A stretch of 64,000 nt of DNA from Ulota crispa (Eukaryota; Streptophyta; Bryopsida; Orthotrichales; Orthotrichaceae). Made by a program: the position numbers and the translations under genes. Below, piece by piece: positions 14,570 to 62,956 of this stretch. The DNA lies in assembly GCA_963920765.1 (NCBI GenBank), contig OY987246.1, positions 25,367,167 through 25,431,166 of the forward strand, written 5' to 3'. Each line of letters begins with the position of its first letter. The first letter of the stretch is position 1. The notes under the pieces were generated by a model. The model saw only the letters and a program-made list of their open reading frames with translations, did not search any database and was not told where the DNA came from.

Positions 14570-14799
14570 TTAACCCGTGCAGGGCCCTTGGGCTCCGGAT
14601 CTACGGTACCAAATACAGCTGCAATCAATATTCAAAACTTTGAATTAGCTAGAAATAAAGTGTTCTAACCATATATTGAAGGGTTGTAAGATGGTTGATG
14701 CATAATTTTTTTTGAAAAACCCTCATAGTAGCTCAAATATAGCTGTACACATGATCATACATACGGCCGCAAAGGGCATTCGGGCCCTTTAAGGGTTAA
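14570..14799. mobile_element. TTAA-flanked piggyBac-like MITE, 230 bp
   Basis: Bounded by TTAA on both sides. The left end reads TTAACCCGTGCAGGGCCC and the reverse complement of the right end reads TTAACCCTTAAAGGGCCC. The CCC start after TTAA and the AGGGCCC subterminal block match the family described across the window. The interior is AT-rich and non-coding. Confidence 0.8.
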
Positions 14800-15706
14800 A
14801 GATGATTTGTTGCTATTGCTTCAAGGCTCTATGCATATCTATAGAATATTTGGGAACAATCTAATAAGTATTTAGACTATTTTAATTATGTAAAATATTT
14901 ATAACATTTTGTCACATGTTGCCAAATTTTTAGTGACTTTGTAGGATCAATTAAGGCTAAAAATAGTATCAATAAATATTTTAAAAAATAACTAATGTTT
15001 ATACGTTTTGAAAGATACTATCTTTAAAAGGCAAAGTATGAAATCACTATGTAAGTCAGATGATTGGAAATTGTAAAATATTTTTAGAAAATAATTTGAT
15101 ATTTTTGCAATTGTTGTAAACAAGAAAATTTATTCCTAAAATACTTTATGCTTTTGATATTTTTTCTCAACTCTATCACTATACCTATACAACAAAAATC
15201 GTAATTAAAAAAAACTCACTAATAAGAAATCTTTGGCAAAGGGGTTTGTTTTAATTCGGAACCATGAGTTTAATATAAAATTTACCTATTATAAATGCCT
15301 TCTTACAAAGATGGTATAAACTATCCCTTAAAAATGGCCAACCACCCAACTATGAGAACTTTAACCCTTCAAGGACAGGCCTACAACCATGGATTTTTTA
15401 TGGAATTGCAATTATCTTCTAGGAGTTATTTTGACAATGTAATCAACATCAAAATTCAATATTATAATTTTAGTAGAAGAAGGTATGTGCATACTACACG
15501 TATAAAATTTATTCATAAACTTTGGGTGAAATTTTGAAATTATTGTAATTTTTTGAAGCAAATGCTAAAGGAATTCATATTGATTACAAAATGTATTCAA
15601 TCATGCCATTTTTTTGTCGTGGATGTGAATCACAATGAAGATCATCACGATGGGATTTTTTTCCCATGTTGGTAAAATTAGAAAAAGTAACCATTCCATG
15701 GTAATA
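14800..15706. other. AT-rich intergenic with one solitary TTAA/CCC end
   Basis: Very AT-rich. At 15361 the sequence TTAACCCTTCAAGGACAGG resembles a left end of the piggyBac-like family, but no matching right end was found before the next element, so it is at most a fragment. No gene. Confidence 0.4.
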
Positions 15707-15940
15707 TAGTCAAGCCTCTCTTATTGCATATTCCCTATTTGCATAACTACTTGGAGTTCTTAAATTGCATACTCTTTATGTGCATAAAGTGTGGTCCAAT
15801 AATCATGAATGGAGTTATTTTTGTCAGAGTGGGATCACCAAAGTACAATGTCACCAATAGAAAATTTGCTTGAACCTCTTTGTGTGCATACTACTAAAAA
15901 AACTCCCCACCATTCCCATGCAATAAGAGAGGTTTGACTA
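15707..15940. mobile_element. pogo/Emigrant-like MITE with TA duplication, 234 bp
   Basis: The left end TAGTCAAGCCTCTCTTATTG (preceded by TA) pairs with the right end ATGCAATAAGAGAGGTTTGACTA (followed by TA). About 24 terminal bases match with one difference. A TA duplication with an AGTnAAACCTC terminus resembles pogo-type Tc1/mariner MITEs such as Emigrant. The interior contains TTGCATA and GTGCATA motifs and no coding capacity. Confidence 0.75.
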
Positions 15941-16498
15941 TAGGTATTCAACTTGTGATAGTAATAAAATTTTCAAAACTAATTTTTTTAGAAACTCAAA
16001 GTACAAGGAGAATCTAGATCTAGTAATATTTCTATTGCCAGCTATGCTCAAACCAAAAACAAATCATTTTAGTAACTCACATTAAGTTTTGGTAAAAAGA
16101 TCCTCAAATTTTAAAATACACTACACGGTGGTGCATCTTTACTACTCAATTGGCAAATGGGACCTTTTGTGAACATTATGCATGCAAAAGCTATCTATCT
16201 ACAAGCTCGCATTATTCATATCCCAACAAAATCTTGGATAAAAAACACTATTATTCCACTGTCTAGAGCCTTGTCTAGAGCATTTTTAGTCATCCAAAAG
16301 CCACAAATGGTTGCAACAACGTTTAAGAGTTCAAAAAATCAAACCAAAAGTCAACAAAAGAAACCTTGCCCTATCAATTCCCCACCCTCCCCTCTTGCAG
16401 TTGTCGATAAAAACTAAATGAAGAAAACCACCTCATGCCACAGATTTCAAATATTCTTTATCATTTGCAAGCCAAACTAATGTCACACAAATACAATT

Positions 16499-16637
16499 AA
16501 GGTAACCCTCCCCAAACCTGACCCTTTAACAAGTCATCCCCAATTCCGACCCTTCAGTACTCAAGGTGTACATTTCAGTTTAGAACTTAAATGTACACCT
16601 TGAGTACTAAAGGGTCGGAATTGGGGAGGGTTACCTT
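16499..16637. repeat. Hairpin element, ~139 bp
   Basis: The outer arms AAGGTAACCCTCCCC and GGGGAGGGTTACCTT are perfect complements. A longer inner stem pairs CCCCAATTCCGACCCTT plus AGTACTCAAGGTGTACATT with its complement around a short loop near 16580. A spacer of about 25 bp occurs only on the left side. Non-coding; family unknown. Confidence 0.75.
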
Positions 16638-16844
16638 ATAGGGTGGATTACTAGTTTGAATTTTTTTGAACCAACGAAATAGTGACATGTGTACCCGTTC
16701 AATTTTGGCTAACTGTGTACCCCAATTAATTTATTCATATGTACATGATTCTCATTGATTTCTCCTTTTGCACGTGCTCTCACTATGCTCAAAGAAACCA
16801 AATACAACTTAATAGAGAAGAGTGTTTTCAAGAACCAAGTAGTT

Positions 16845-16925
16845 TTAACCCCTCAACGCCCTGGGTATCATCAAGTACACGGAAAACAGAACCATATTTT
16901 TGCTCTTGGGGCGTTGAGGGGTTAA
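16845..16925. mobile_element. Minimal TTAA-flanked TIR element, 81 bp
   Basis: TTAACCCCTCAACGCCC at the left and GGGCGTTGAGGGGTTAA at the right are a perfect 17-base inverted pair around a 47 bp interior. It carries the same TTAA/CCC signature as the larger family and is the shortest copy in the window. Confidence 0.8.
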
Positions 16926-17611
16926 GTACTCAATACAAGACTCAATAATAATTACAACTATGAAATCTCATGTGTGACAAATTAGCACAATGTTTCTTAA
17001 ATACTAAACAATAAAAGAAATTCATAAAAAACACAAACCTTTGATAAAATTGCAAATTTTCACATTTTTTAATAGTTGAACTACACAAATTCTTTACTTC
17101 AGAGCTTGTTAGAAAATGGTTTGAAACAGAATATGTGATGCCAAGATAATAAAAATATATATTGTAATCAATAAGATTTGAAGTGTTTTATTTTATGTCT
17201 TTCATGCATACCTTCTCCTTTGTTTTGCAACTCTTTTCTACTAAAATTGAAAAAATCACACATACCTTAAAATTATACATACATCTTATAAATAATTCGA
17301 CATACAATTCACTAATACTTATATTTATATAACCTGTTGATCTTAAGAAACAAGGACATGGCCGAGGACATGGCTCACATTGAAATTCTTTTGTAAATTC
17401 TACGTCAAAATCACTAACACACATTGCATCATTAGGAAGAAAGATGTAAGGATTGTAGTTTTTGGCTTGAGATGGAGAAAATCAAAAAACACGTTGTCAT
17501 TGTTATGGTTTATTTTTATTGAAAAAGACTTGTTTTATTATAAGAATGATCACTGGATTAGTCATTAGTGCAGGGATAGTAGAATTGATCATTAGAAGAT
17601 GGATCAAACTC

Positions 17612-17852
17612 TTAACCCCTAAAGGATCAAGCAGCCCTTTGTGACTAATACAATATGGGGTATTTTTTTTGTATTTGGAGTGCATCCACACCTTTATTAT
17701 ATTTGAGATCAACAAAGAAGTTAGAATATAGATTAACTTTGTTCTAGTGAGGTTATCAAGATCCCAAATTAAACCTTTTGTTGATAGCAAATGCCAATTA
17801 TACATCAGTGTACATAGTATGTATTATAGTAACTTGGTCCTTTAAGGGTTAA
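17612..17852. mobile_element. TTAA-flanked piggyBac-like MITE, 241 bp (copy 1 of subfamily with 62717)
   Basis: The ends are TTAACCCCTAAAGGATCAAG and the complement of TCCTTTAAGGGTTAA. The interior (TTTGTATTTGGAGTGCATCC, ATTTGAGATCAACAAAGAAG, GTACATAGTATGTATTATAG) is shared almost throughout with the element at 62717-62956 in the same orientation. Non-coding. Confidence 0.85.
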
Positions 17853-18297
17853 GCACGTATCAAAGCCACACCAAAAAAAACCAAACGATTTTTTGGAATA
17901 AAAACATATTCATTCTCTAAAATACATAAATCTTAAAGCACAAATTAAAGTCGTGAATGCACAAATCTAGTTAAAAGAAACCAAACATGTATGCATACAA
18001 AAAACAATATAAACATGTAGAAAAGCAATTACAAATAAAATTGAAGCATAAGTCTAATATTAAACTAAAAGACACATCTAAGATACTGTATGTTTGCTTG
18101 AATTAGAACTCAGTTTTTATTACATCGCTATTTGCATTTATGATCTCAAATAATAAAAAATGGATGTGCTGTAATGAGAAATTAATTTTTTAGATCTTTT
18201 GAACGTGTCAAAGGCATTTTATCATTTTTTAAGGTTAAGTTTACAATAACAGTGTCAAATTCAATTGTTTTGCTCTTCAAGTAATTGAGGTATTGTA

Positions 18298-18953
18298 TTA
18301 ACCCCTCATCGCCCAAGGGGCCCAAATTGGGCCCTCTGCATTTTATTTAGAGATGTGCAACTTTTTTTTAAGATTTTTTTTAGTGATTATTATTATTATT
18401 TTTCAATTCTTATTGAAGTCTAGGTTTAACATTAGGAGTTTGATTTTGAAAATGAATTAACATGATTTGTCTATTCAAGATTTTGTGCAAGGGTATCCAT
18501 TGCAAATCTTCACTTTCAAGTGTTGAAGGCTCTTGAAAATGAGCCTCAAGTACATTAGAACTTGGAGAAAAAATCATATTAAGAATTCAATTAAAAAATT
18601 TGTAAAATAGATTTTGAGAAGCCGTAAATTGATTGGGGTTATGCATGATATTCTTTATATATTTATATTTTGTTAGTACCCTCAGTTTTAGGTTTGAGAT
18701 GCAAAAAGAAGGTTGAAAGACTTGAAATCAGTTTTGCAATTTTAACACCCTCATGATCAAACATTATAATTTTTCAATCCATAAGTGATATTGTTGTGAT
18801 TTGTTTTCCTATGTGATCTATAACATGTCTACTTTGAATTTGTACGGTTGCGCTTCAGAGAAAATTACTAAGGTTGATCAAAATACTAGCATTTTGTTCA
18901 CTTTCAAGCAAATTTTGAGATACTCAAAAATAGCATGGGCGGTGAGGGGTTAA
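18298..18953. mobile_element. TTAA-flanked piggyBac-like element, 656 bp
   Basis: The left end is TTAACCCCTCATCGCCCAAG and the right end, reversed, is TTAACCCCTCACCGCCCATG. The interior (TTTGATTTTGAAAATGAA, CAAGATTTTGT, GAGCCTCAAGTACATTAGAA, CTTGGAGAAAAA) matches the element at 58467-59121 in the same direction and the one at 46772-47294 in reverse. No open frame for a transposase. Confidence 0.85.
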
Positions 18954-19278
18954 AACCCTTATATCTTAAATTTGATAAAATATCATAAGAAATTAAACGT
19001 TCTTTTAATGGGAGTATTTGATAAGTTACCAATTATACATATTTATAGGTCAAGTCCCCATACCTTCAATCCTTGTTACTGTTTTTGCAAATTTTGCAAC
19101 AAGTTCAAGCAAAATGATATGCAAATCCCAACCCAACCAACCCGAAAGATTTATAATGTTTGAAATACGATAATTTATAATTATTATCATCATCACTTTG
19201 TGGAGGTGGATGTGGTTAAGTTGATTGAAAAAATAGGTGCAAAATTATTCAATTATTTTCTTGCAGTACTGTACTATG

Positions 19279-20158
19279 TACTGTACACAATACAGTGAGG
19301 TACATGGTGCTTACAAACTGCCAATTTCAGCCTCTCTGTTTTTTTGGGTGAAATCTAGTGTAAAATTGGTGTGTTTTTTGACAATTTTTTTTATTGCATC
19401 CTTATGCAATCCCAATCAAGTATACCGAAAATTAATTTCAAAAGACCAAAAGTTTGTTTTTGGTGAATTACTTTATGTAAAATTCATAGTTTTACATGAT
19501 AATTGATTGAAATCTCTTAGTGATGAATTTTTGAGATTTTATTGCATAGGTATGTAGAAAAGATCCATGTGCACATCTTTCATGCTAAAAAGAACCCTCT
19601 TAAGTACAAAAGTTTGAGTAACAAAAGATTTTGTGTGACAAGAAATATGCCCAAATTTTGTAAACCATATTTGTTTATTTATTTGACTAGTTTTTACCAA
19701 GTAAACAATTTATCATGCTTAAAAACACAAAATTAGTTGCAATATTTGAGTTGAAGAGCAAAATTTGATTATCAGACAGAATAGTCTATTTTACAAAGTT
19801 TGGGCATATGACTTGTCACACTCTATCTTTTGTTGCTCAAAATTTTGTACTTAAGGTGGTTCTTTTTAGCATGAAAAATGTGCGCACAGATGTTTCCTAC
19901 ATACACATGCAATAAAATCTCAAAAATTCATCATCAATAGTTTTCAATAAAACTATGAATTTTACATAAAGTAATTTACCAAAAACAAACTTTTGCTCTT
20001 TTGAAGTTTATTTTTGGTACGCTTGATTGGGATTGCATAAGGATGCAATGAATTATTTTTTTGTTAAAAACATACCAATTGTACACCAGATTTTACCCAA
20101 AAAACTGAGAGGCTGAAATTGGCAATTTGTAATCACATTGTACTCCACTGTACAATAA
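19279..20158. repeat. Long hairpin (snap-back) element, ~880 bp
   Basis: Inverted arms of roughly 400 bp each run inward from GTACACAATACAGTGAGGTA at the left and its complement near 20130-20158. Internal landmarks shared with the other long hairpins are TGCAATCCCAATCAAG, TTTTTGGTGAATTACTTTA, GAGATTTTATTGCATAGG and TGCTAAAAAGAACC, each seen once per arm in opposite orientation. The loop lies near 19700-19740. Short frames inside are not coding. Confidence 0.75.
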
Positions 20159-20389
20159 CTCACAAGATATTTTACACTTGACTTGTAGAATTGGAGCACT
20201 TATTAGCAAAAATACATATACGATTTCATTCAAATGATTTTCAAACAACTAATTGTCAAGTATCAGAATGAAAAAAATAATAGAGTACCCTTACATAATT
20301 AATGATACGTACATGCCTATTTTGTCATTCATAATACTTTGCATAATAATATATAGTAAAATTGAGATTTTGTTGTTTTGAATCATAGG

Positions 20390-21150
20390 TATTGATTTTT
20401 ATGCAATCCCAACCAAGCATATCAAATTTTGTTTCCTAAAAATCAAAATCCCATTTTTGGTGAATTATTTTGTACAAAATTTATGATTTTTTATGAAAAT
20501 TGATTGAAGAAAATTGGTGATGAACTTTTGAGATTTGATTGCATGGATATGTAGAAAACATCCATACACACATTTCCCCCTCTAAAAAGAATCCCCTTAA
20601 GTAACAAAATAATGATCGACAAAGAGTTCAATGTGGGGTGGTAAGATCAAAATTTGTACTTGTACATTGTGACTAAGTTTTTACCTTTGAACATGTTGGT
20701 GTTTTTTGGTAAAATGCTAACTAAAAACAAAAATTATTTATTTTACAAAAATTGGACATATTATGTGTCACACTAAACCTTTCAAAGATCAATTTTCTTT
20801 TATTTAAGGGGTTTTTTTTAGCATGGAAGATTTGTGTACGGATGTGCGTACGGATGTTACCTATATACCCATGCAATCAAATCTCCAAAATTCATCATCA
20901 ATGTTTTTCAATCAATTTTCTTGTCAAATCATGTAATCATGATTTGTGACGCAAAAAAATTAATCAAAATTTTGGATTTTGATTTTTTGGGGTTGAATTT
21001 TGGTATGCTTGGTTGGGATTGGGGGTAAAAGTGAAATACAAAAAATGCAAGGAAAAAAAGGCCAATTGACCTCAACTTCATTTTATAACACAACATGACC
21101 TCTACATGGCAAAAGAAGGGCCAACAATCTTTATTGGAGGCCACTATATG
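20390..21150. repeat. Long hairpin element, right side longer than left
   Basis: The left arm starts with TGCAATCCCAACCAAGCATA. The right arm ends with the complement TATGCTTGGTTGGGATTG near 21005-21021. Beyond it, 21040-21150 continues with a segment (GGCCAATTGACCTCAACTTC) that matches the outer right arm of the hairpin at 35434-36317, so the left outer arm has been lost. Non-coding. Confidence 0.6.
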
Positions 21151-21173
21151 TAAATGAAAGATTGTCAGCCATT

Positions 21174-21367
21174 AGGGGGTTTCACATATGCCTGTCAGCA
21201 CCAAAATTGTTCACGTGAATAAGATTTGTGAATAACCCGGCCAAGTCATGGAGTGAACGAGCCATGGCAACCGATCTCCCAGAGGTTGTCATAGTGTATT
21301 CACCGGTGAACAAAAACTTGTTCACAACCATTCATTCATCATTTTTTTGAGATATATGAAACCCCCT
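21174..21367. mobile_element. MITE with AGGGGGTTTCA ends and ATT duplication
   Basis: AGGGGGTTTCACATAT at the left and ATATATGAAACCCCCT at the right are flanked on both sides by ATT. The same architecture occurs at 43468-43794. The interior carries TTCACGTGAATAAG- and GTTCAC-type repeats. Superfamily uncertain. A 3 bp AT-rich target site would fit PIF/Harbinger. Confidence 0.75.
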
Positions 21368-21515
21368 ATTGTATGTAAGTTACAGCATAGCAAAAGGAAG
21401 ATGCAGAGGAAAACTAGAAACGTTAATCCTAGGTAGATGGGTAGGTTTATGAAAACAAGTCAGCTTAACATGCCTAAGAAGCTGATGGAATTGTGCTGTT
21501 GTAGAGTAAGTTTAG

Positions 21516-21834
21516 GGGCGGTTCAAACTACTTCCCATGGGAGTGCAAAATCCCATCTTTTTGGGTTAAAGAAGATGGGAAATGATGGGACTTGGACTAA
21601 AAGATGGATCTGCCAAAATGCTAAACTCAATCTTGGAGTGAAGTTCCACTTTTTTTGGAGCCAAGAATTTGGAAAAGTGCTGCCAATGTAGGCTCCATGT
21701 AAGCAAGTGGGATGTGGGACTTAGGACATAGTCTGAAACTCGAAGTCCCATCTTTTGCCTCACCGCCAATCAAATTCTTAGATTTCATCAAAAATTAGTG
21801 GGACTTGGGACATGGGACATAGTCTGAACCGCCC
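21516..21834. mobile_element. TIR element with GGGCGGTTCA ends, 319 bp
   Basis: The left end GGGCGGTTCAAACTA matches the reverse complement of the right end (TAGTCTGAACCGCCC) with one mismatch. Subterminal blocks CCCATGGGAGTGCAAAATCC and GGGACATGGGACATAG are loosely complementary. The interior repeats the word CCCATCTTTT and its relatives. Non-coding. Confidence 0.65.
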
Positions 21835-21880
21835 AAGTGTCATATTACAAGATGACGAGGATGGAGGAGTGAGAAGTGAG

Positions 21881-37202: not shown

Positions 37203-37203
37203 G

Positions 37204-38759: not shown

Positions 38760-38858
38760 TTTTTTCCACAAAAATAAAGCTCCTTGACAACTTGTTGAAA
38801 GGCTAATCCTATGGATTTTTTCCCTGAATTTTTTGAGACCTTGACGTACTCGAAACCC

Positions 38859-39739
38859 TTAATCCCTAAATGCCCAAGGGTGTTTTTCTTATTTTTTGAA
38901 GGTAGTTTTGAAGTTTTTGAATTGTCCTTGTCAGATCATTATTAAACATCAAAACAAAATTGTAACCGTTGAATCTTGAACTTCAAGGTTTCTAGATGGC
39001 ACTACCCAATAAGAATCCAAAATGGCCGCGCGGATTTTAAGATACTTGTGATTGGACAATGATGAGTATGGAATTTTTTGCTTTTTTTTGAGTTGCCCGA
39101 AACTTCTAATGTAAATTGGCAACTTGTAGATACAAAATTGGGAGACAACCACTTAGGATGCTTTAGTGTTTATTGTTGTTACTTCAAAACCAATGGCCCC
39201 TCTTCCAAATCCATGACCACAATTTCACAAATGAACTTGCAACGCAACTATCAAAACGCAATTGTCTATTACAAAGAAATTTTCAACTTCAATTATTAGC
39301 TGAACATCATTATGAATGAAAGAAAGTTCAACGGTGAAAGGATCCTAATTTCTATAACAAAGACATTCCAAGTGAAAGTAATCCAAAAGCACTTTTAGAT
39401 TTTGTTAAATGTCAAAATTTCAGTGAAAAGGCCCTTATTGCCCAAGGGAAATCTTCACCTTTTGCTCAACTTGATGCCCGTTTTTTCAATGTGGCAACTT
39501 CTCATAGGCTCTGTGACACTATTCACAACAAAAAATGTATGCTTGTAGTTAACCTTCCACCAAAAACAAATGAAATAAGATATGAAGGAAGTTGAATTTG
39601 AATGATGAAACTAACTTCAATGCACAACTTTCCCACCAGAAATCTCAAAACAATAAAATCTGTAACTTTTACAGGGTTTCAAAATTTTCTGAAATTTCTT
39701 GTACAGCAGAATCTGGTGCCTTGGGCATTTACGGGTTAA
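38859..39739. mobile_element. TTAA-flanked piggyBac-like element, 881 bp
   Basis: The left end is TTAATCCCTAAATGCCCAAG and the right end, reversed, is TTAACCCGTAAATGCCCAAG. The interior matches the fragment at 62953-63735 in the same orientation (for example GAAGTTTTTGAATTGT versus GAAGTTTCTGAATTGT, and CTTCCACCAAAAA in both). It ends about 280 bp before the HINT start codon. No transposase frame. Confidence 0.8.
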
Positions 39740-44176: not shown

Positions 44177-44405
44177 TTAACCTGTAAGCGCCCAAAGTTA
44201 TTTTAAGATTTAGGAGAAAATGGGGGTTTAATGGGCTTGGAAAATTACATTCAAAAAAAGTGACCATAGGATTTGAAAAAGGACTACCTTCTCTGCTAAT
44301 GGGGACTAGCCTCGATTGTTTTCATTGTATCAATTGGGAGAAAAAATGAGATAAAGTTGTGGGCCCCAATGACAGGATCCTGTTGCTGGAGTGCTTAAGG
44401 GTTAA
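44177..44405. mobile_element. TTAA-flanked piggyBac-like MITE, 229 bp
   Basis: The left end is TTAACCTGTAAGCGCCCAAAG and the right end, reversed, is TTAACCCTTAAGCACTCC. The ends are more diverged than in most copies but keep TTAA, the CC start and the GCnC block. Non-coding interior. Confidence 0.65.
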
Positions 44406-44459
44406 GACATCAATATGCTAACTTAAAAGTAATTTAACTACAATTTATGTGAGGGCATC

Positions 44460-46771: not shown

Positions 46772-47294
46772 TTAACCCCTAAATGCCCAAGGCTTTTTTA
46801 AGCTTCTTAGAATTTCCATGAAAGAGAACAATCAACAAACCTTTTCATAAATTTTATGAATTTTTTCATAATTGTAACCGCACCAATTCAAACTAAACAT
46901 GATAGAGATTACGTGGAAAAAGAAAACTCAACAATATCAATTTGCACGTCTAACTATAATCAATTTACGGTTTTAAAAATTGACACCTATATTTTTTTTA
47001 AATGGATTTTTAATGTGGATTTTTCTCTAAGCTCTAATGTATTTGAGGGTCATTTTCAAGATCTTCCAACACTAGGAAACTCAAGATTGCAATGGACACC
47101 CTTGTACAAAATCTTGAAAAGAAAAATCATCAACATTCATATATAAAATTATATTTTTGATGTTGAAAACAAACTTCAAAACAAATGTGTAATGAAAAAA
47201 AAACAAATCAATAATTGTGATTTGATAAGGTTTTATTCATTTTCAAAATTTTGTTGAGCACCCAAATCTGGTTGCTTAGGCATTTAGGGGTTAA
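46772..47294. mobile_element. TTAA-flanked piggyBac-like element, 523 bp
   Basis: The left end is TTAACCCCTAAATGCCCAAG and the right end, reversed, is TTAACCCCTAAATGCCTAAG. The interior is a shorter, reverse-orientation relative of 18298-18953 and 58467-59121 (TTTTCAAGATCTTCCAACAC, CAAAATCTTGA). Non-coding. Confidence 0.85.
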
Positions 47295-48595: not shown

Positions 48596-48654
<59 letters not shown>

Positions 48655-50566: not shown

Positions 50567-51524
50567 TTAACCCCTAAAGGACCAAGTCCTTTTTTCTGTG
50601 AAAATCACTGAAAATTGCCATTTTTTGGGGAATGAGTACAAAGGTAGGAAAAAAAGTTATTTTTGAAAATTTAATTGTAAAATCTTGCCTTAGACTACGG
50701 GAGGTATTTGTAGGAAAAATTTCAGCTCATTTTAGAAGTAGAGGAGTGAGATATTGACATCAGAAGTGACTTTTTTTTTTCCCTCTTGCTGTCCAAAAAT
50801 TTCAAAAGCCTTTGATGGCTCCTATATCAAAGAATTGCTCTATGCAAAGTTGAGGTTAAATTTTCCCATGTAGTAGACCATGTTAGGTAAATGTGGGAGA
50901 ATTTTCAAATGAATTGGAAGTGTGAATCATACTTTGTAAAATCTTGCAATGTTGTAAGGCCATGAAGTTTGCATATACACTAGGCAAAGTTGGAGGATTT
51001 ATGTAAAATTCAGAAATCTAAATTACTTTGATCCAAATGGTAAAATCCAAGGAATCTTAATCTACTACAACTTGGAAAAAAAAAAGTAAAAAAAAAAAAC
51101 ACAAAGAGCTCAAAAAAGTAAAGTAACAAAGTTTACACGGGGCAAAAAGAATGTAGTTTTGGGAGTCCCATACCTAGCCGCAAATTAAAACTTCTCATAA
51201 CTTTCATCTCATAAATCAAAATTGAATAATTCAAAGATTTCCACATATAGAAAAATCTAAAGAACCAATTTCAGATTTTTATTTTTAAAAAATGCAATTT
51301 TGATTATTATTTTTGGCTGCCTGTCCTCCCCTTTTTCAAAAATTCATGCATAACTTCTTCAATAAATGTTAAAATGAAGAAAGAATTAGATACCCACGTA
51401 GATCTTTGAATTACCCATCTTCAATAAAAATTTGAAAAAATCACAAAACGTAGATTAGCTGTAGTAGGTACATGCCTGTAATCCATTTGTCCCCAAGGGG
51501 ACAATTAGTCTTTTTAGGGGTTAA
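50567..51524. mobile_element. TTAA-flanked piggyBac-like element, 958 bp
   Basis: The left end is TTAACCCCTAAAGGACCAAG and the right end, reversed, is TTAACCCCTAAAAAGACTAA. It is the longest simple copy of the family here. Its right part (about 51160-51524) recurs in inverted orientation at 51800-52155. No transposase frame; the longest open frames are under 70 codons. Confidence 0.8.
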
Positions 51525-51799
51525 ACTGGAAGAAGTGTGCGAGATATTTTATAATAAAACCTTATTCCTAGTATAATGTTCACTTTAGTGGAATTATGAA
51601 AATAAATCAATGTGAAAAGTTCGATGAAGTTAACTTTTAGTTCAAATGAGTCTTTGAAAAAGTGAGCATGTAGATGAAGGAAATCTATATTATTTTTAAT
51701 TCCTTTGTAGGCCAATCAATACATTTTAAATATTTCATCAAGTTTCACTTCAATCTTATCAATAATTTATATACACTTGTGTTTTGAAGAATTTTGAAA

Positions 51800-52155
51800 T
51801 TAACCCTTAAAGGCCCAACTGTTCCCTTGGGGATAAATGGGATTTTGGGCATATACATACAATTAAGCTACTTTGTTTGATTTTCTAAATTTTTTTACAA
51901 AAGATATGGAATTCAGAAACCTACATGGGCATCAAAGTGTTTCTTCATTTTGACATTTGTTGAAGAAGTTATGCATGAATTTCCAAAAATCAAGGGAGGG
52001 CATGCAACCCAAAAACTTCTTTAAAAATTATATATTTTTAAAATAAAAATTTGAAATTGATTTTTTAAATTTACATATACTGTATACAGGAAGCTTTGAA
52101 TCATTTAGTTTTGATTAATGAGATGAAAGTTATGAGAAGTTTTAATTTGTAAGGT
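51800..52155. mobile_element. One-ended inverted fragment of the 50567 element
   Basis: It begins TTAACCCTTAAAGGCCCAAC and continues as the reverse complement of the right part of 50567-51524. Landmarks are the Glu/Lys-free stretch with GATGAAAGTTATGAGAAG and the CTTGGGGA block near the end. The other end is missing. Confidence 0.7.
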
Positions 52156-53499
52156 AAGTTTAGACAAGGAAGCGGATAAGATTTAAGTGCATCTTATTGG
52201 CCAATGGGAGGGTTTTGTCTGCTAGAGCTTTCACATTGAAGCGGACGGCCAATAGATGGAAGCGCCATGTTATCACCTTTTCTCGCCAAAACTAGAGAGG
52301 ATCACTTGTAGTAAACAAGATGTGGGGTCACCTTGGGAGGTGATCTCAAATCGTCCATTAGACAAAACACTCCCTCTCACTTCATGTGAGGTAAAGACAA
52401 AATTATGTCAGTTAAGATTAGAAAGAATAAAAATGCACCTCCATTGGACATTTAATGCTTAATGTGAAAGGCTTCTCCGAACAAATAAATCATGCCATGA
52501 TGACATGGCAATTTCTCCTCCAAACTTCACCAGATGAAGCACAGGACAAGAGCTTGAGTTCGCTGGATATGGACGTCGCGATCTGAAGTTCTGAACCTAG
52601 GTCCGAGTCAGCCTAGTGATGGAGTGTTTGTCTTTCCTTCCTTTTAGGAACATTGTTTCCACTGTGAATATGGATTGCCGCTTGGACGCCCGAAACGCTG
52701 AGTAAGATGTGACCCTAAGCCCTAAGGAGTGGAAGGGCTCGTCCATGGAAGGGGGTTATAAAGGCGACCTATCGGTTTGTTCGTTTGCTTGATGATCTTG
52801 ACTCGTGAGGACGGTGACGTGGATGTGAAAGATCCTGCTGATAGTTATTCTCGGATGAATTGCTCTACTGTACAGTACAGTAGGTTAGGTTATCAAGGTA
52901 TGAGTTTTAAATTATGTTGGTGATGCATATGGGTCCGTCGTCGAGCCTATCTGCTCAATGCATCGCTGTGCAGTGCTGTAAGTTATGCAGCCATTTGCAG
53001 CTGTTATTAACTTATGCGCTGCTTGCCTGATTGCTTGCTTGCGTGGGCAGTGAGTGTCTGTGCAACAGTGCAAGAGGGCGGGTCCCGACCTTGCTCGCGA
53101 GGGAGGCAGGCAGGTGAGAAGCTGAAGCTGAACGGAGGCGTGCGGACTGCGGAGCAGCCAGTGATTGTGTATTTTCCACTCCCTCCGTTGACCTTGCCCC
53201 TCCTCTGTCCTCTGACTCCTGTCTGGGCCCAGCGATGGCGCTGATCGGTCGATGATGATGATGATGATGCTGATGATGATGTCTCAATTGTTGCCCATTC
53301 CGGAGGTTCATCCTCTCTAAAACTTATGCCGTTTAGCTTCAGTTGGTTGCCACTTAACTTTGCTTGGTTCCCTCCTGGCCGGACTTTTCATTCTGCTTCC
53401 TCTCTCTCTCTCCCCCCTCTGTCTCTGTCTCTGTCTCTGTCTCTCTCTGTCTCTCTGGTGCTGCTGCTGGTCGGATTGTGGAGCGCTCTGTGTCTCGCA
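52156..53499 (+). promoter_or_regulatory. Upstream region and 5' leader of the CAT9-type gene
   Basis: GC content rises from 52.5 kb. Simple repeats include GATGAT at about 53252-53282 and a TCTCTG run at about 53400-53458 just before the start. An upstream ATG at 53326 is in frame with the CDS and open all the way to it. No TATA box was fixed. Confidence 0.45.
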
Positions 53500-56400
53500 A
53501 TGGCTGCTGCTGCTGTTGCGTCGCAGCGTCGTCGAGCGGGATCGTGGTGGTCTCAATTCTCCTCCTCAGCGCTGCGCGTCAAACATGCGCCCGTTTCGTT
53601 TGCAAACGACAATCTTGCGAAGCGTCTCGGAGGGAATGCCGGGCCTGCTTCAAGCGGTCTGATTCGCAAATTAGGGCTTGTGGATCTCATTCTTCTGGGC
53701 ATTGGTGCATCCATTGGTGCGGGCATTTTTGTTATCACGGGCACCGTCGCTCACGATGCAGGCCCTGGTACGTACGTATCTAGATTTTTTGTACTCGAGT
53801 TTTTCTTTTGTTTTCCATTGTTGTTTGGTTAAGATCATGAGCTGCTGCACCTCTTCATGTGCTGTCAAAGCGACTTGTTGTTGACCTCGTTGCGGATTTT
53901 ATTTTTACTTGTTCTGTTCTGTTCTGTTCTGTTCTGTTCTGTTCTGTTGTTGGTTCAAAATTGAGTTGGTATTCGTTTTTCCTTCCCCTAATCCAATGAT
54001 TGCGATTGGCTAATTTCTGTTCCAAATCAGATTCATCAATGGAAAGTGGTTCTCAACCATTTTATCGTAATTTTATGAGTTTTATTGATTCCTCTTTTTT
54101 ATTCTTATGAAGCTGATGAAGATACACCTCCTCTTTTTGTGTAGCTGTGGTGTTTAGTTTTGCATTGGCGGCAGCTGCGTGCGTGCCGAACGCTCTCAGC
54201 TATGCGGAACTTTCAAACCGGTTCCCAGCTCTTGTTGGAGGCGCTTACCTGTATTCATATTCCACCTTCAATGAGCTCACGGCATTTTTGGTCTTTTGCC
54301 ATCTTATGATCGATTATCATATCGGGGCGGCAAGCATTAGCCGTAGCCTTGCTAGCTATCTCGTAACTACGCTTCAGGTGAGATAATTTTGTTGGATTTT
54401 GACTTTACCTTCAACACACGCATTGCCTCACTCTTATATTTTTAGACTTCTGAAGCTGAGATACAAGGATGAACATGGATTTTGCAGTTGGTCAGAAGTA
54501 GAGATGATTTTCTGGGTTTTGCCAGTTTTACTTACTTAAAAAATATACATAATTCGATCAACATTCTCAAGCTTCACAATTATCATCCCTTCCGAAGAAT
54601 CCCATGACATACAAAGATACTTATTTTGCACATTTTAATTGCCTTTTTGGCTTCTATTAGTTCTCCCCGTTTCTCTTCTAGCCATTCGAATCCTCCATCA
54701 CCCTCTCCACTATTCTCTTCATCATTCGTATGTCTCCAAAGAAAATTACACATGATTTCATCCTTATTATCCGACTGGCTCAAGAACGTTAATGTTTGAC
54801 CTTGGAAATCTTTGAGAATTATTGCATTTCTTTATCATTTTTGACAATGCATCAATTTAGTTTGTTCCGTTGCATGTTTACTGCAATTGCAGTAGAAAAT
54901 CAAAGATTAGTATATAATATATTTCAATATGATCAAACAGGTTTTTCCTGCAGGGAAAGCACTGCCAGAATGGGTTGGGCCAGGGGGGCTAGAGCTGTGT
55001 GACGGAGTGTTTTCCATCAACGTGGTAGCACCGTTGCTACTGGCTGGGATTACCATCATTCTATGTCAAGGTGTCAAAGAATCATCTGTGATTAACGATG
55101 TGATGACTGTATCGAAGGTGCGCTTATTTTCTTGGGGACAGTACAATTTTTTTGAACGAAAAACCATGGTCATTCCGTGTCTGCCAAGTGAGGGACAGAG
55201 TAATTTCCCTTGTGTATTCTGCTCTGTTCTTTCAAATTTCTTTCTGTATTTTATTTTAAAGTTTCTTGTTGTTGCTTGATGATATGGACACAACCATTGC
55301 AGGTTGTTATTGTGCTGATGGTGATTGCGGTGGGGAGTTTCGAAGTTGATACATCCAACTGGACACCATTTGCACCGAATGGTCTAACAACTGTGATTAC
55401 AGGGGCTACTGTTGTTTTTTTCGCTTATGTGGGGTTTGATGCGGTTGCCAATTCTGCCGAGGAGAGTAAAAACCCGCAGGTATGGTTGCACTACAGCATT
55501 GTTCGTTATTTTCTTAAATCATTGGGTTGTGGATGAACTGTATGTTGTTTATCCAAATGACGTGATGGATTGGTGACAAGATCCCCTACCCCTCCAACAA
55601 TTCGTTGGCATTGTGTATGGAGTTTTCTTCTCCCTCACTTTTTCCGCTCTGAAATCCGAACGTGTGCCTGCAGCGGGATTTGCCAATAGGCATACTCGTG
55701 AGCTTGTTTGTGTGTGCAGGTCTATATGTGGCAGTTTGTTTGGTGGTCACTGGTATGGTGCCTTATGCCAACCTTGGTGGAGATGCTCCCCTTGCTAATG
55801 CCTTTACAGAAAAGGGACTGAACGTCATGAGTATCCTCATCAGTGTTGGTGCCATTTGTGGCTTGACTACTACAGTTCTTGTCGGCCTCTATGTCCAGGT
55901 GTTCAATCGGATGCACTTTCTATCTGTATTTTTTTCTCTGTTTTGTAGATATTGTTAAGTATTTCCTTTCCTTGCAATTTATATGTCTTACTGTGATGGA
56001 CTCTTTACGTCCTGATCGTCTATGAAAATTTGCTTGATGTTTATTGTTATCTTGATCTTTGCTTCAACGGTGATAGCGATTTTGCTCAAGTTTTTTTTCG
56101 CTATCATGTGCAGTCCCGGTTGTATTTAGGATTGGGGAGAGACGGTCTACTACCTGCATTTTTTGCAAAGATACATGATAAGTATCGCACACCTGTAGCT
56201 GCTCAAATATGGGTTGGTGCTGTGGCAGCTTGCATGGCTGGGCTTTTTAATGTCAGCCATCTCTCACATATCCTCTCGGTTGGCTGCTTGGTAAGGCTAC
56301 CTCGTAGGGGCGCTCTTGTTATTTTAAAAGAAATTTCTTCATGTTTAGCTCGATGTTGCTGACTGCAGATTTTGTGATATGTGGTATCTATGTGAGCTTG

Positions 56401-57446
56401 CTAAATTGATGCTTAGTGGCTAGCGGGTTTATTGTGAGGATATGGGTTTTTCTTTGCAAGTAATGTTTTGTCCAATGGTTGAGAGAAATCTTTGATTTAT
56501 TGCTTTTTTTGGACTCATGGTGTCGTTGGTGGAGTGGTCAATAGGCGTCATACTCCGTCGTATGTGCGTGCGTTGTTATGCTGCGACTAAATACTGATGA
56601 TCAATGGCACGATCGGGAGAATCATCTTCCACAGAAGGGTCTCACTCGGTGGCAAGAAGCCCTTCTATGCATATTGAGTATGGCTTTATTGGGATTTTTA
56701 GTTGGTTTGTGCTACAGAACTGATGCCCCAGTAGCCTATGCTATAGCTCTGTTGGCGATGATGGGATTGCTGACGATTCCACTGCTTGCTCGCCAGGTTT
56801 GTTGTTCACTCCATTTTGTGGGCGTCAATAGTTTTTTTTTTTTTTTTTTTTTAATTTTCCAGATACCTGAGAAGTTGCCTAAATTCTATTTCTTTTGTGT
56901 CATATTTTATTGCTTTCTTGACTCTGTTGCTTCTTGCGATCATGCAGGAGTACAGGCGACCATCGGGTTTTGCATGCCCTTGGGTTCCTCTATTCCCAGT
57001 GCTGAGCATTGGATTCAATATGTTTCTTTTTGCTCAGGTGATCTCTGGTTCTAATTGTTCTGTCTTTTCGATTGATTATCGCAAGCTTCCCTACTTTGTA
57101 TCTACTATATTGGGTGCCTTGAGTCCATGTATATTTTGCTACATGATTGCAGTACGACGGTGTTTGCTTTGAAAAGAAGGGGTTGATGAAACGTCGCACG
57201 TAATCTCTATATGTGTATTCTGGATTACAAACAAACTCAAGCAATTAATATTTCTATACTTGCTTTTGGCAGCTGCACTGGGAAGCCTGGGTAAGGTTTG
57301 GCGTTGTCACATTAATAGCCATACTGGTGTATGGATTCTATGGCCAGTATAACGCCATCACCGACATGACAATTAGCGAGCACTCGCCCTTGTACTATAG
57401 AGCTCCCGTTGAGGATGAAGATACCCCATTTGAGAACCCAGCATAG
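53500..57446 (+). CDS. CAT9: Cationic amino acid transporter, CAT9 type
   Basis: APC-superfamily amino acid permease with many membrane helices; the plant CAT9 group is linked to vacuolar or vesicular membranes. Nine exons: 53500-53767, 54145-54377, 54941-55117, 55303-55479, 55674-55898, 56114-56290, 56545-56796, 56948-57037, 57273-57446. All are in phase, giving 590 aa (Arabidopsis CAT9 about 570). Signature stretches: GIGASIGAGIFVITGTVA in the first helix, NALSYAELSNRFPALVGGAY, DYHIGAASISRSLASY, GATVVFFAYVGFDAVANSAE then ESKNPQRDLPIGI, and SRLYLGLGRDGLLP. The C-terminal PWVPLFPVLSIGFNMFLFAQ and VYGFYGQYNAI are also family-typical. The N-terminus (WWSQFSSSALRVK) resembles that of CAT9, supporting the ATG at 53500. 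An in-frame ATG at 53326 would add 58 low-complexity residues and is judged leader. Confidence 0.96.
53907..53949 (+). repeat. TTCTG microsatellite in CAT9 intron 1
   Basis: About seven to eight copies of the five-base unit TTCTG in a row within the first intron. Length polymorphism is expected, with no effect on the coding frame. Confidence 0.9.
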
Positions 57447-58466
57447 GTTTGTAGAACGCTGTACTGAAGTAGCCGAATTCGGATGCTATAGGTGGAATTG
57501 TTTATTTCTAATTTACTTTGTTGCTTGTGAAGCGTGTCGAAGTGTATTCTCCTGTACAAAATAGCTTCAAACCTACTTGGATGGTGGGGTGCAGGGGTAT
57601 CCCTTTTGTAAGTCGTATACTGAATAGTGGACTCAGCATTCGTAAAGGACCTGGCTGAACAGTCTACATGCTTTCAAAGGTACTTGCATGTAAGTTGGCG
57701 CCTGGCTAGGTCCATTTTTTACTCCTGAATGTGGATTTTAGGTGATCTGGAGGGTCTCTTAGTAGATGAGTTTTGTGGTGATTCGTCTACGAATCTCTAA
57801 AGAGTAACGAATCTTTCGTTAATCCTGTGAAACATACGGCTGGATTGGCTAGACTTCTGCAATGTAAGCCACTTATTCTTTACAAGTTCAAAGGTGGGAT
57901 GCCTGTATCAAATCACGCTCTCAATTTCAGAGTTTCTATGGATGCTTACACCGATTACTTTGATTATTTCTTTGGAACACGTACAATAGCAGTATCCTTA
58001 CTGAGAGTTTGATTGGTTTAGTTTCTTATTGGCCAAATACATGAAACAAGTTAAAGTGGAGCATGGCTGACTGTTGTAATGCAGGGTTCAAAGCACTGGC
58101 AGTGAGAATATATGCAGTTTCAAAGGACACGAGGTTCCTATGTATGTTGGGGAATTTGGACTACATGCATACTCTTCAAAAGGCTGTTTTCTAATAAATT
58201 ATGGCATTACTGCGACAATTTTAGTCTGGCTCATCCGTTCAAATGCACGAGTATTTTTTATGTATTCATCAATTAGTACTGTTAAGAGTGGTGGTGCCTT
58301 GGTATGAACACAATCATACATGTTCAAGATGAAAGAGTAAAAACTATACCATAGACAAATATAGTAAATTGAAATAATGCAAAAATCAATCAATCAAACA
58401 AAAATTGCCCATATACTTACAAAAGTGAATGGAACTTAACATGCTTAGATCTAAAAAAATGAAACA
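57447..58466. other. 3' flank of CAT9 and intergenic
   Basis: Moderate GC near the stop, falling with distance. A possible poly(A) signal, AATAAA, occurs at about 58193. No further gene was recognised. Confidence 0.4.
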
Positions 58467-59121
58467 TTAACCCCTAAATACCCAAGCGACCAGATTTGGG
58501 TCTCTACAAAACTTTGAAGATGAATGAAACCTTATCAAATCATTATTTTTGGTGTTTTTTTTTTTTCAATATGAGTTTGTTTTGAAGTTTACTTTCAACA
58601 TCAAAAATTTGATTTTGAAAATGAAAGTTGATGATTATTCTACTCAAGATTTTGTACGAGGTGTCCACTCCAATCTTGAGTTTTCTAGTGTTAGAAGATC
58701 TTGAAAGTGAGCCTCAAATACACTAGAGCTTGGAGAAAAATCCACATTAGAAATCCATTTAAAAAAAATATAGGAGTAGATTTTTAAAACAGTAAATTGA
58801 TTAAAGTTAGACATGTAATGACCTTAAACCTCATATTTTTTTGGTGATCAACTTTTTAGATTTGACATGTGAAATGAGGATTAGAAGACTTTAAGTCACT
58901 TTTGCAGTTTTAACACCCTCATGTTCAAACATTATACTTTTTCAAACTATAAGTGATATTGTTGTGTTTTCTTTTTCCATGTAAGCTCTAACATGTCTAG
59001 TTTAAATTTGTACAATTACAATTAAAAAAAACTTGATGAAATTTTTTAAAAGGTTAATTGATTGTTCAGTTTCATGGAAAGTCCAAGAAGCTCAGATAGG
59101 GCTTGGGCATTTAGGGGTTAA
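58467..59121. mobile_element. TTAA-flanked piggyBac-like element, 655 bp
   Basis: The left end is TTAACCCCTAAATACCCAAG and the right end, reversed, is TTAACCCCTAAATGCCCAAG. The interior aligns by eye along its length with 18298-18953, which is almost the same size (656 bp) and in the same orientation. Shared words include GAGCCTCAA, CTTGGAGAAAAA, TTTTAACACCCTCATG and AAGTGATATTGTTGTG. Non-coding. Confidence 0.87.
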
Positions 59122-59465
59122 CAAAGAAACACTCAAACTTTTCACCAATAAACTTCACTATAATGGTCTACCAATTTCATGGCATTATCAACCGTTTAAC
59201 AACAATTTCAATCTATTTAACTACATCGTTCACCAATTTTACATATTGATCAGCCATTTTAGTAGCAAGTTTCAGCTAAGTTCACTAATACTGCTAATCA
59301 AAGTTTTGATTTTGAAATGGAACATATTCCATAAAGTCCGAAATGATAGTAATTATTTTACTTTACTGTAGTTGTGATCTAAAGAGAGAACTAATAAATT
59401 ATGATGAAAAAAACAATATATGATCTTGTATGGATTAGTGGATGGTTATTGTTGATGGTCACTTA

Positions 59466-59911
59466 GAGCATCATCAATGTGTACATTGCGAATGGGACTT
59501 GGAAGTAGCCGGACTTTTGTCACTCTCTACTCCTTAAGTATGTAGTTTCTTTCACTTGCCGGATCCTTCCAATGTTGATGCAATTCTCGTTGCAGATTCA
59601 AGCACGGTAGTAGAAGAACGCAAGTACTTGCAAGTTGTTATTGGGAAATTGCAAGCTATTGCAAGCTATTGTTAGTTATCACAAGCAACGTGTCACCTTG
59701 TTAACAAATGTAGTGCTCATTGGAAAAACTAACTAGGGCACGGGAAAACAAGACAATATGTTGCTCCAATAGGTGGTTTTAACAGAGTCATGTCCAGCAT
59801 TTCCATTCTGGTGGCTACGTTGGAGCCTTAGAAAACCCAAAACTTCTTGCTAAAATGACCCCACCAAGCAAAATGTAGGCCCATCTCCAAGTGTACGCAT
59901 TGATGATGCTC
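59466..59911. mobile_element. Tourist-like (PIF/Harbinger) MITE, 446 bp
   Basis: GAGCATCATCAATG at the left and CATTGATGATGCTC at the right are perfect complements, each flanked by TTA. A TTA duplication and a GAGCATC terminus are typical of Tourist-like elements in plants. Subterminal GTGTACATTGCGAATGGGAC and CCCATCTCCAAGTGTACGC extend the match. Non-coding. Confidence 0.8.
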
Positions 59912-60564
59912 TTAGGTTTTATTACAAGCTTACAAAATTCAATATTTGGTTGCTAAATCAAAAATATCGTTACATCTCAAACAAAACCATTGGTTTCATT
60001 TGATCTTCGTTTTTTGTTTTTATTTGTTTTTGACAGTTTCACAGTAAAAATGTAAATTATAGCAATATTTCTATAAAGGCAATATTGATAACGGGATCTG
60101 GGATTTGACTAAGAAACTGAGCCTTGACCTACTAGAAAACTTTCAAATAACTACTTATCCTACAGTAAAAATACAATAAAAAACATTGTAATGTGTACGA
60201 TTCTGAAAAGCATGGAAGCTTTTTTGGTGGTGGGAGGTACGATGAAGAACTGTGCCCAATGCCCATGACGAGAGTGGTGCGAAGTCTTACGTGGAAACAT
60301 GAATGAAAATATCTATGGGGTGTTTCCATATAAACTTAAGCCATAAATCGACATTTTAGGTCCGAATGAGGGCATCTCAATAATTACACAAAGATTAAGA
60401 GGCCAGACATGGACGTATGACCAATCACAATAAAGACAAAAAAATTCACATGGAAATTTCATTTGAAACTTGGGCAAGAATCAAACAATCAGTTGTAATT
60501 TTTATGCACATTGCATGCAAGTATGAAAGAATTTGGTGTTGCAAATAAATTTCTTATGGGAACT
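59912..60564. other. Intergenic, no gene recognised
   Basis: AT-rich; only chance frames. Confidence 0.45.
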
Positions 60565-60944
60565 GATATGTGTACTACACTCTTTAAACTACTGTACCAC
60601 AGGCAGTAGATTTCTATCATCAAAAAACTGAATTTGAGAATTTAGAATTTAGATTTGAACTTAGAGACCATGATATAGTCTAGAATCATATAAAAAGTTG
60701 CAATTCAACAACTCTCAATGAAAAAGTTTAGTTGAGGATAAAAATGTTATTTTTACTTTTGTTTGTAAAAAAAAATAAGCTTTTTCATTGGGTGTTGAAT
60801 TGCAACTTTTTTTATGGTTCTAGACTAAATCATGGTGTCTTAGTCCAATCTTGAATTCCATATTCTCAAATTCAGCTTTTTGAAGGTAGAAATCTAAAAC
60901 TTACTCCAAGTACAATAGTTCAAAGGGTGTGTGGTACACATATC
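60565..60944. mobile_element. Fold-back MITE, GATATGnGTA family, copy 2
   Basis: The left end GATATGTGTACTACACTC and the complement of the right end GATATGTGTACCACACAC match. The inner pair ACTCAATGAAAAAG and CTTTTTCATTGGGTGTTG forms the hairpin centre. It is clearly related to 44460-44857 and 63751-64000. Non-coding. Confidence 0.8.
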
Positions 60945-62716
60945 AATTCTTGTCTCTTATATGATCCGCATCTAAATGAATTGAAGATCTCACGCCTAAG
61001 TTACCACAACTAAGTGGCATTCTTGCACAATAAAAGAGTGTGTGAACATTTGACCTTCTTGGTTGAGTATGTTGTTTAACCCCTAAGCATCACAAATAAA
61101 ACAGCAAATTTGGGAGAGCCTTGTAAACTAAATGGAATAACTTGGAGTTTAAGCAACAATTCAAAATCCACCGTAGAAATTTGTTGGCAACTTCTTGAAA
61201 AGTGCAAATCTACAATTTGTGTAGAAATCCACCATACAGATATGGAAATTATAAAGTTTGATGATTAAAGTATTCCTAGAATCCGGATCCAAAAAACATC
61301 CTTTCTGACTCTCAGGGGTGAACCCCTAATTGTAAGCATAGTCATTATGTGCCAATTGGGTGACTTCTGAATACTGCTCACTCACAATAATTCAACAATA
61401 TCCATTTAATCCTTGCTTTGGCATTTTCTTGAGTGGCGTTGCTTGAATGGTGTTGAGATTTGCTAAATTGTGATGTATATTAATTTTTATACGAAAACAA
61501 ATCTTTATAAATAGATCACCAAAAAAAAGCCTTTTTTGTGTATTTTTTGGGAATTACTAAAGCCACTCCCAAAACTGTTAATGTCACTCCTTGAGGTGTG
61601 CTTTGAGCATGAGTTATGAGAATTCAATATTCAATTTTTAAGTTTGGATCAAAAAAATTGTTTCATCTTTATCATTCTAACGTTATATTCAAAAAAGATT
61701 GGAGGTGCTTGAATTTGAAACTGAAAAAAAAGGACTTCTAAAATGTTTAAAACAAGAATACATCAAAAAAATAGCAATGGTGCAATAAAAGTTCAACAAA
61801 AAAATTATTAGTTTTTCTTTTTTTCAAGAAGGTGGTAATGCCTTGATTGAATGAATGATGGACTACTTGAATTAAACAAGTAGCTTTCAATTTGCAAAAT
61901 ACATGCTTATGAGGGTGTGGTTTAGCAATTTTGGGTGTGACTTTAGCAGTTCCCTTTTTATATTTGTACTCTTACTCTAAATGTAAAACATAGAAATTAT
62001 ATACATTGAATTTGAGACCAATTAAAAAAACAAAGGTCATAAACTCTACTTTCTATTCCAATTTGAATCTTTGGAAAATCCCTAAAACTAAATATATTAA
62101 GGTATGTACACCCATAAGCGTCAAACTAAGGGTTTTGAACATGATGAGTATCAATAAGCAGCTAGCAAATTATAGGATCTTATTAGGAACAAAAAAATAA
62201 TAAGTTTGCACTTTCAAATGTATTATTTGGATATTGTGAGAATAAGTTGTGAATTTTTAAAGAGCAAATTGCCATTGCACCCATAACCACTTTCAAGATT
62301 TCATGTTCACATGTTATACATCCTTGTCATTACATCTATTCACTTCCACAGATTTTTCAAGATTTTAGAGGTGACTATTATGGGGACACTCACGCTCATA
62401 GGTGTACATACCTTACTGCCACAAGTCCACAACCACGATCTTTCAATCTTTCTAACTATAATATTGTATGAAAATTTGGTTTGTACCATGACGTTCTACA
62501 CTATAAAGTAAACCTACAACGAATTTTCCGAAAGAGAATTAGCTTATTTTAGGTTCACAAAAAGTCAAAATATTTTTAAGATCTATAGAAACACGGTGTT
62601 TGGTTCTTCAAAAAGAAAAAAGAAAACGAACAATCATTCAGAAGTAGTTGCTAAAGGGGAGAATACAGTGTTTAACTAAGTGGTCATAGGTCCCAAATTT
62701 AGGGATAAGGGTTCCC
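60945..62716. other. AT-rich intergenic with one solitary TTAA/CCC end
   Basis: At 61076 TTAACCCCTAAGCATCAC looks like a left end of the piggyBac-like family with no partner found. Otherwise AT-rich with only short frames. Confidence 0.4.
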
Positions 62717-62956
62717 TTAACCCGTAAAGAGCAAAGCAGCCCTTTGCGACCAGTAGAATACGGGGTTTTTTTTTTGTATTTGGAGTGCATCCACATTTAT
62801 TATATTTGAGATCAACAAAGAAGTTAGAATATAGATCAATGTTGTTCTAGTGAGGTAGCCAAGATCCCAAATTAAAACTTTTTATTGGTAGCAAATGCTA
62901 GTTATACATTAGCGTACATAGTATGTATTATAGTAGCTCACTCCTTTAAGGGTTAA
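62717..62956. mobile_element. TTAA-flanked piggyBac-like MITE, 240 bp (copy 2 of subfamily with 17612)
   Basis: The ends are TTAACCCGTAAAGAGCAAAG and the complement of TCCTTTAAGGGTTAA. The interior is nearly the same as 17612-17852 in the same orientation. Its right TTAA is also the left edge of the next element fragment, suggesting insertion at or next to an existing end. Non-coding. Confidence 0.85.

What the first reader, a model, noticed from the sequence alone, without database searches (positions are those of the whole stretch)
14570..62956. Dense family of TTAA-flanked, CCC-starting TIR elements: piggyBac-like MITEs in a plant genome
Seen directly: about ten elements carry TTAA at both ends followed by a TIR near CCCCTAAATGCCCAAG (14570, 16845, 17612, 18298, 38859, 44177, 46772, 50567, 58467, 62717). 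There are also fragments or single ends (15361, 51800, 61076, 62953) and a composite at 7045-9243. Sizes run from 81 to 958 bp. Known: a TTAA duplication with CCY-starting TIRs is the hallmark of piggyBac, which is described mainly from animals, fungi and some algae. Inference: an active or recently active piggyBac-like transposase exists or existed in this plant lineage.
Basis: partly seen in the sequence, partly recalled or inferred. Interest (0 to 1): 0.8.

Follow-up and report, generated by a model that had tools for sequence, protein, structure and literature searches.

The report
piggyBac transposons flourishing in a moss
A moss genome carries thousands of short jumping-DNA elements, and decayed parent elements in the same genome show that they belong with piggyBac, a cut-and-paste transposon group known mainly from animals, fungi and protists and hardly reported from land plants.

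Summary
The 16-base tip CCCCTAAATGCCCAAG occurs 3244 times in it, 2742 times directly after TTAA; a second tip occurs 3038 times with TTAA. Two paralogous empty sites show a TTAA duplication. The genome holds at least 120 stretches matching DDE_Tnp_1_7, the piggyBac transposase domain. Of 20 such places read, 7 lie in 5.0-5.7 kb elements edged by TTAA (one edge altered in two) and CCC-starting tips. One of these, L024, shares 585 bp of its end (82%) and its other tip with window element 38859-39739. So the window elements are most likely non-autonomous piggyBac elements. 'Recently active' is only partly supported: most transposase stretches carry stops, the closest MITE copies aligned differ by 6-11%, and the most alike long pair by about 10%. 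What is new is the host: the open-access papers searched describe no piggyBac expansion in a land plant, and a 207-genome plant MITE survey mentions neither piggyBac nor TTAA in its main text.

The parts
14570..14799 (.). TTAA-bounded element of a ~230 bp family, weak TIR (11/16)
   Evidence: like copies in L008, L033 and L045 that begin and end within 1-2 bases of the same edges
16845..16925 (.). 81 bp TTAA-bounded element, both tips CCCCTCAACGCCC (13/16)
17612..17852 (.). 241 bp TTAA-bounded MITE, 87% identical to 62717-62956
18298..18953 (.). 656 bp MITE related to the 58467 family (73% over 586 bp), TIR CCCCTCATCGCCCAAG
38859..39739 (.). 881 bp MITE; first 585 bp 82% identical to the end of long element L024, other tip also related; it ends 132 bp before a HIT-domain reading frame
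44177..44405 (.). 229 bp TTAA-bounded element, weak TIR (10/16)
   Evidence: like copy in L008 (82%, 222 of 229 bp)
46772..47294 (.). 523 bp MITE, internally deleted member of the 58467 family, opposite orientation
50567..51524 (.). 958 bp MITE with a CCCCTAAAGGACCAAG tip (3038 exact TTAA-tips of this kind in the genome)
51800..52149 (.). single end, 76% like the right end of 50567-51524 in opposite orientation; together they form the long inverted repeat 51181-52149
58467..59121 (.). 655 bp MITE of the main family (nearest nine copies 91-93% by the tool)
62717..62956 (.). 240 bp MITE between two TTAA
62954..63380 (.). truncated terminus 72-74% like that of long elements L024 and L034
15361..15706 (.). 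single TTAACCC end, 80% like a stretch of L006 over 385 bp

Best explanation
The elements are miniature, non-autonomous members of the piggyBac superfamily in the moss Ulota crispa. Longer elements (5.0-5.7 kb) with the same kind of ends carry a piggyBac transposase gene, now mostly broken. That enzyme most likely bound the CCC-starting inverted ends, cut the elements out and joined them at TTAA, so that TTAA stands on both sides. Shown here: shared ends for the 38859 and 58467 families, TTAA target duplication, transposase homology, and that the long unit moved as one piece. Inferred from known piggyBac biochemistry: the cutting and joining chemistry, seamless excision, and mobilisation in trans.
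For: Tips: 2742 of 3244 exact 16-base tips follow TTAA, reversed-pattern control 0; a second tip 3038 times with TTAA. In the window plus 20 loci TTAA precedes 46 tip-like words, the next commonest 4-mer 3. Empty sites: the L044 element sits in a copy of its own family, and uninserted copies have one TTAA there; the L005 element sits in one arm of an inverted repeat whose other arm is empty with one TTAA, 89% over 204 bp. Transposase: 120 PF13843 stretches, best E 1.3e-73. L021 and L030 are 90.5% identical over 5029 bp and the likeness stops at the TTAA (in L030 one TTCA) edges. L024 is 5738 bp with tips 15/16 alike. L034 has both termini related to L024 and to window element 38859-39739, and 35 bp at 97% to 58467. 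L025 and L039 have matching TTAACCCT edges 5.6 kb apart. Solved relatives: with L021, T. ni piggyBac 6x67 E 1.6e-25 and piggyBat 9c0f E 2.7e-21; with L024, 2.5e-13 and 7.4e-16. The four catalytic aspartates are kept in 18, 13, 18 and 16 of 20 copies; 11 of 20 have all four.
Against: Outer edges could be placed for 7 of 20 long loci only: L021, L024, L025, L026 and L039 with TTAA on both sides, L030 and L034 with one altered; for L025 and L039 the tips agree in just 11 of 16 and BLAST did not report their edges. No transposase was linked to the CCCCTAAAGGACCAAG or the ~230 bp families. Pfam zf-Tnp_2 was not found (its control was silent too, so this says little). Mobilisation in trans is not shown.
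Confidence: 0.95

Rival explanations
1. PIF/Harbinger (3-base TWA duplication) or Tc1/mariner (TA) MITEs whose tips happen to read as TTAA plus CCC.
For: These superfamilies are among the five usual sources of plant MITEs (passage of PMC12550479), and TTAA contains TTA, TAA and TA (duplication lengths recalled).
Against: Two paralogous empty sites have one TTAA where the filled ones have two. Long elements with the same ends match only DDE_Tnp_1_7 above cut-off; one further match, Acetyltransf_2 at E 0.064, is below its cut-off. This genome was not searched for Harbinger or mariner transposases.
Confidence: 0.02
2. The piggyBac transposase genes merely lie inside some other element, and the MITEs derive from that other element.
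For: 13 of the 20 long loci have no placed pair of edges, and other repeats are common around them.
Against: L021 and L030, on chromosomes 3 and 10, are alike over the whole 5029 bp with the domain in the middle. L024 and L034 share both termini and the domain in the same order. No other transposase domain in the 16 reading frames scanned.
Confidence: 0.03
3. Assembly contamination by an animal or fungal genome with piggyBac elements.
For: piggyBac is described mainly from such hosts (passage of PMC12732532).
Against: Transposase stretches lie on all of C1-C11 and scored MITE copies on C1-C10, and the window copies lie among reading frames such as PS_Dcarbxylase and HIT.
Confidence: 0.01

Closest known systems
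piggyBac of Trichoplusia ni (PDB 6x67/6x68)
   Same: DDE_Tnp_1_7 transposase with alignable aspartate motifs; TTAA target and CCC-starting tips (recalled for T. ni)
   Different: Host is a moss; the placed moss elements are 5.0-5.7 kb; low protein identity; thousands of short derivatives
piggyBat (PDB 9c0f; host Myotis lucifugus recalled)
   Same: Closest solved chain to the L024 transposase fragment, E 7.4e-16
   Different: Mammalian; moss copies read here are mostly broken
piggyBac MITEs of insects (recalled; a Helicoverpa MITE paper appeared in the listing and was not read)
   Same: Short TTAA-bounded derivatives of a piggyBac parent (recalled)
   Different: Animal hosts; tips not compared
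Entries labelled PiggyBac in the fern Ceratopteris repeat table (PMC6890710, passage)
   Same: The label in a land plant: 1230 copies, 122 kb
   Different: About 100 bp each; no transposase, tips or target site in the passages seen

Membership tests
piggyBac superfamily | TTAA target site, duplicated on insertion | tested here: met
   (paralogous empty sites)
piggyBac superfamily | terminal inverted repeats starting CCY | tested here: met
   19 of 20 tips of the ten window elements begin CC (the left tip of 38859 begins TCC)
piggyBac superfamily | related long element with a DDE_Tnp_1_7 transposase | tested here: met
   linked for the 38859 and 58467 families, not for the others
piggyBac superfamily | catalytic aspartates (D268, D346, D447, D450 of T. 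ni; numbers recalled) | tested here: met
   all four in 11 of 20 copies, at least one lost in 9; the first two motifs align with solved chains
piggyBac superfamily | C-terminal cysteine-rich domain | tested here: inconclusive
   a Cys-rich tail is visible after the domain in L024 3707-4138, but no Pfam match
piggyBac superfamily | seamless excision leaving TTAA | not testable with these tools
   needs an excision assay or population data
MITE | short, non-coding, high-copy, sharing ends with a longer coding element | tested here: met
PIF/Harbinger MITE | 3-base TWA duplication and Harbinger transposase | tested here: not met
   TTAA duplication; no such domain in the reading frames of L021, L024, L034 scanned

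The most novel reading that the evidence does not exclude
Mosses host an old, diversified piggyBac lineage, with at least eight transposase groups at about 34% median identity in one genome. It has been a major producer of MITEs in this species, and it is a land-plant branch of the superfamily gained by ancient descent or by transfer from another kingdom.
Probability: 0.55. Interest if true: 0.72.

Novelty: new member of a known kind. Interest (0 to 1): 0.6.

Why it matters
A large recent survey sorts plant MITEs into five superfamilies that leave out piggyBac (passages of PMC12550479), so TTAA elements in bryophytes may go unseen or be misfiled. A native land-plant piggyBac would extend the natural host range of a transposase that is used as a tool in plants in an animal-derived form (reference titles and passages). 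It would also let one ask directly whether it came by descent or by horizontal transfer.

Tried and rejected
Seeming partner end of 51800 at 52462: rejected, because likeness to L040 continues beyond it.

Back-to-back tips sharing one TTAA: 6 palindromic sites genome-wide; 2 cases in 39 sequences (window and 38 loci), 0 in the unanchored part of window plus L021-L040. Too few to argue for preferred insertion at element edges.

Viral carriers: one scan of viral contigs with a three-sequence transposase alignment gave 13 pattern matches, none confirmed.

rRNA search for species identity failed twice by machine error; identity came from chromosome lengths.

The listing hit PMC10619864 for piggyBac in a moss was the word 'piggybacking'.

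A 2017 paper on piggyBac evolution (recalled) is not held, so its coverage of plants is unchecked. Supplementary files of the papers were not open to me.

Structure prediction was not run: sequence homology was already strong, and loci from the genome search are not named among the accepted inputs.

Dropped before counts: L045 (lacks the last bases of the match) was left out of the alignments; of L001-L008 only the five that belong to the 58467 family entered the comparison; L009-L020 lie inside L021-L032 and were dropped; one search also dropped L041, which is the window copy.
Full report
What was checked. All ten have TTAA at both ends. The tip CCCCTAAATGCCCAAG with up to 3 mismatches occurs 12 times in the window against 0.44 expected. 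Of 9 left tips next to TTAA, 8 have a facing right tip within 1 kb; none in 100 dinucleotide shuffles. Four of the ten have weak terminal repeats (10-11 of 16); three of these (14570, 44177, 50567) are backed by relatives at other loci covering all or nearly all of them, and 62717 by its 87% relative at 17612 plus partial relatives elsewhere.

Organism. The window is contig 5, 25367167-25431166, of a 274.8 Mb genome in 157 contigs. Contig lengths 41.37, 36.98, 34.06, 25.69, 25.64, 22.91, 22.03, 21.16, 19.14 and 15.79 Mb agree to within 0.01 Mb with the Ulota crispa table in PMC11803377 (passages seen). That paper gives 275.00 Mb in 408 scaffolds, so the copy held lacks small scaffolds. The identification rests on lengths only; it is an inference, but a strong one.

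Copy number. 3244 exact 16-base tips exist in the genome, of which 2742 follow TTAA, and 3038 exact tips of a second type with TTAA. The reversed patterns gave 0. The search with 58467-59121 scored 40 of 3868 candidates; apart from the window copy itself and three partial rows (78-90%), the rows are 90-93% identical and all or nearly full length. Over aligned columns the window copy and eight of the nine closest copies held differ from each other by about 6-11%, while five relatives picked by an exact tip only (L001, L002, L005, L007, L008) are 74-89% identical to the window copy.

Target site. In L044 one element sits inside another copy of its own family. The interrupted copy reads ...ATGATCTTAA[element]TTAAACCTCATA..., and the uninterrupted window copy reads ...ATGACCTTAAACCTCATA... 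(alignment). In L005 an element sits in one arm of an inverted repeat; the other arm is empty with a single TTAA (89% over 204 bp). These are paralogous, not orthologous, empty sites. Of the paired elements given, L005 was the only one with an empty copy in the loci held.

Parent elements. PF13843 (DDE_Tnp_1_7) gives 120 matched stretches, a lower bound since 116 of 528 candidates were scored; 10 of the 120 rows have no stop inside. I fetched 20 of these places with 4 kb on each side. L024 is bounded by TTAA and 15/16 inverted tips, 5738 bp. L021 and L030, on chromosomes 3 and 10, are 90.5% identical over 5029 bp, the likeness beginning and ending at the TTAA edges (one is TTCA in L030). L026 has a pair 5094 bp apart with 12/16 tips. 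L025 and L039, whose transposases group together, have matching TTAACCCT edges 5.6 kb apart, seen by eye; their tips agree in 11 of 16 and BLAST did not report the edges. L034 shares both termini and the transposase with L024, though one TTAA has changed. For the other 13 no credible edges were placed. Window element 38859-39739 is 82% identical to L024 over the first 585 bp, and its other tip is related too (73% over 90 bp to L024, 67% over 291 bp to L034). The L034 left tip is 97% identical to 58467 over 35 bp. This is the link between the short elements and piggyBac; the CCCCTAAAGGACCAAG and ~230 bp families are attached to it only by their like tips and TTAA.

Transposase. L021 and L024 fragments match T. 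ni piggyBac and piggyBat among solved structures. Aspartates at the four catalytic positions are kept in 18, 13, 18 and 16 of 20 copies, and all four in 11. The 20 domains have median identity 34%, and eight groups of two or three have full support in a quick unrooted tree, so the superfamily is diverse here. Six places (seven matched stretches) are 73% or more identical to L024, itself included, among 138 matches with 135 of 492 candidates scored, next to thousands of MITE tips.

Mechanism. Recalled biochemistry of piggyBac: 3' nick, hairpin with the TTAA overhang, joining at a TTAA with 4-base stagger, seamless repair of the donor. What the data show is the insertion half; excision and trans-mobilisation are inferred.

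Activity. The two most alike long copies differ by about 10%, 110 of 120 transposase stretches hold stops, and no copy with placed edges and an uninterrupted domain was seen among the 20 read. A past burst is the better reading; present activity is open, as some stretches elsewhere are uninterrupted.

Literature. Ten searches of the open-access library, nine of them with piggyBac among the terms and one on moss genome notes, did not turn up a described piggyBac expansion in a land plant; one search listed 5 of 1991 papers and 15 of 176, so these two were seen in part only. PMC12732532 (passages) speaks of animals, fungi, protists and occasional plant genomes such as red algae. PMC12550479 (passages) classes MITEs of 207 plant genomes, four bryophytes among them, into five superfamilies plus one special group; the words piggyBac and TTAA do not occur in its main text. 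PMC6890710 (passages) lists 1230 short fern fragments under PiggyBac. Subscription papers, supplements and Repbase were not available, so prior description cannot be excluded.

Noticed in passing
L008:569-2608: Chain of MITEs set edge to edge: 569-1504, 1501-2149 and about 2146-2376 share a TTAA at each junction, and a ~230 bp element at about 2378-2608 follows directly.
   Followed up: partly
window 62714-62970: The 62717 element appears to sit at a TTAA inside the decayed tip of an older L024-like terminus (the flanks read together as CCCTTAAATTCCCAAGG), a possible third nested insertion.
   Followed up: partly
G000 C2:36765112-36765849 and C2:36779829-36780566: Two equally scoring, uninterrupted transposase stretches in opposite orientation about 14 kb apart, 82% identical to L024: probably a duplicated segment.
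   Followed up: no
L024:5560-6810 (minus strand): 416-codon acidic, glutamine-rich open frame upstream of the transposase on the same strand, no Pfam match; possibly an N-terminal exon.
   Followed up: partly
window 7045-9243: Composite of several inverted repeats with relatives in many loci; not resolved.
   Followed up: partly
L024 element positions 1015-1419 and L034 element positions 4063-4446: Both long elements contain a near-palindrome of about 400 bp at corresponding places.
   Followed up: no
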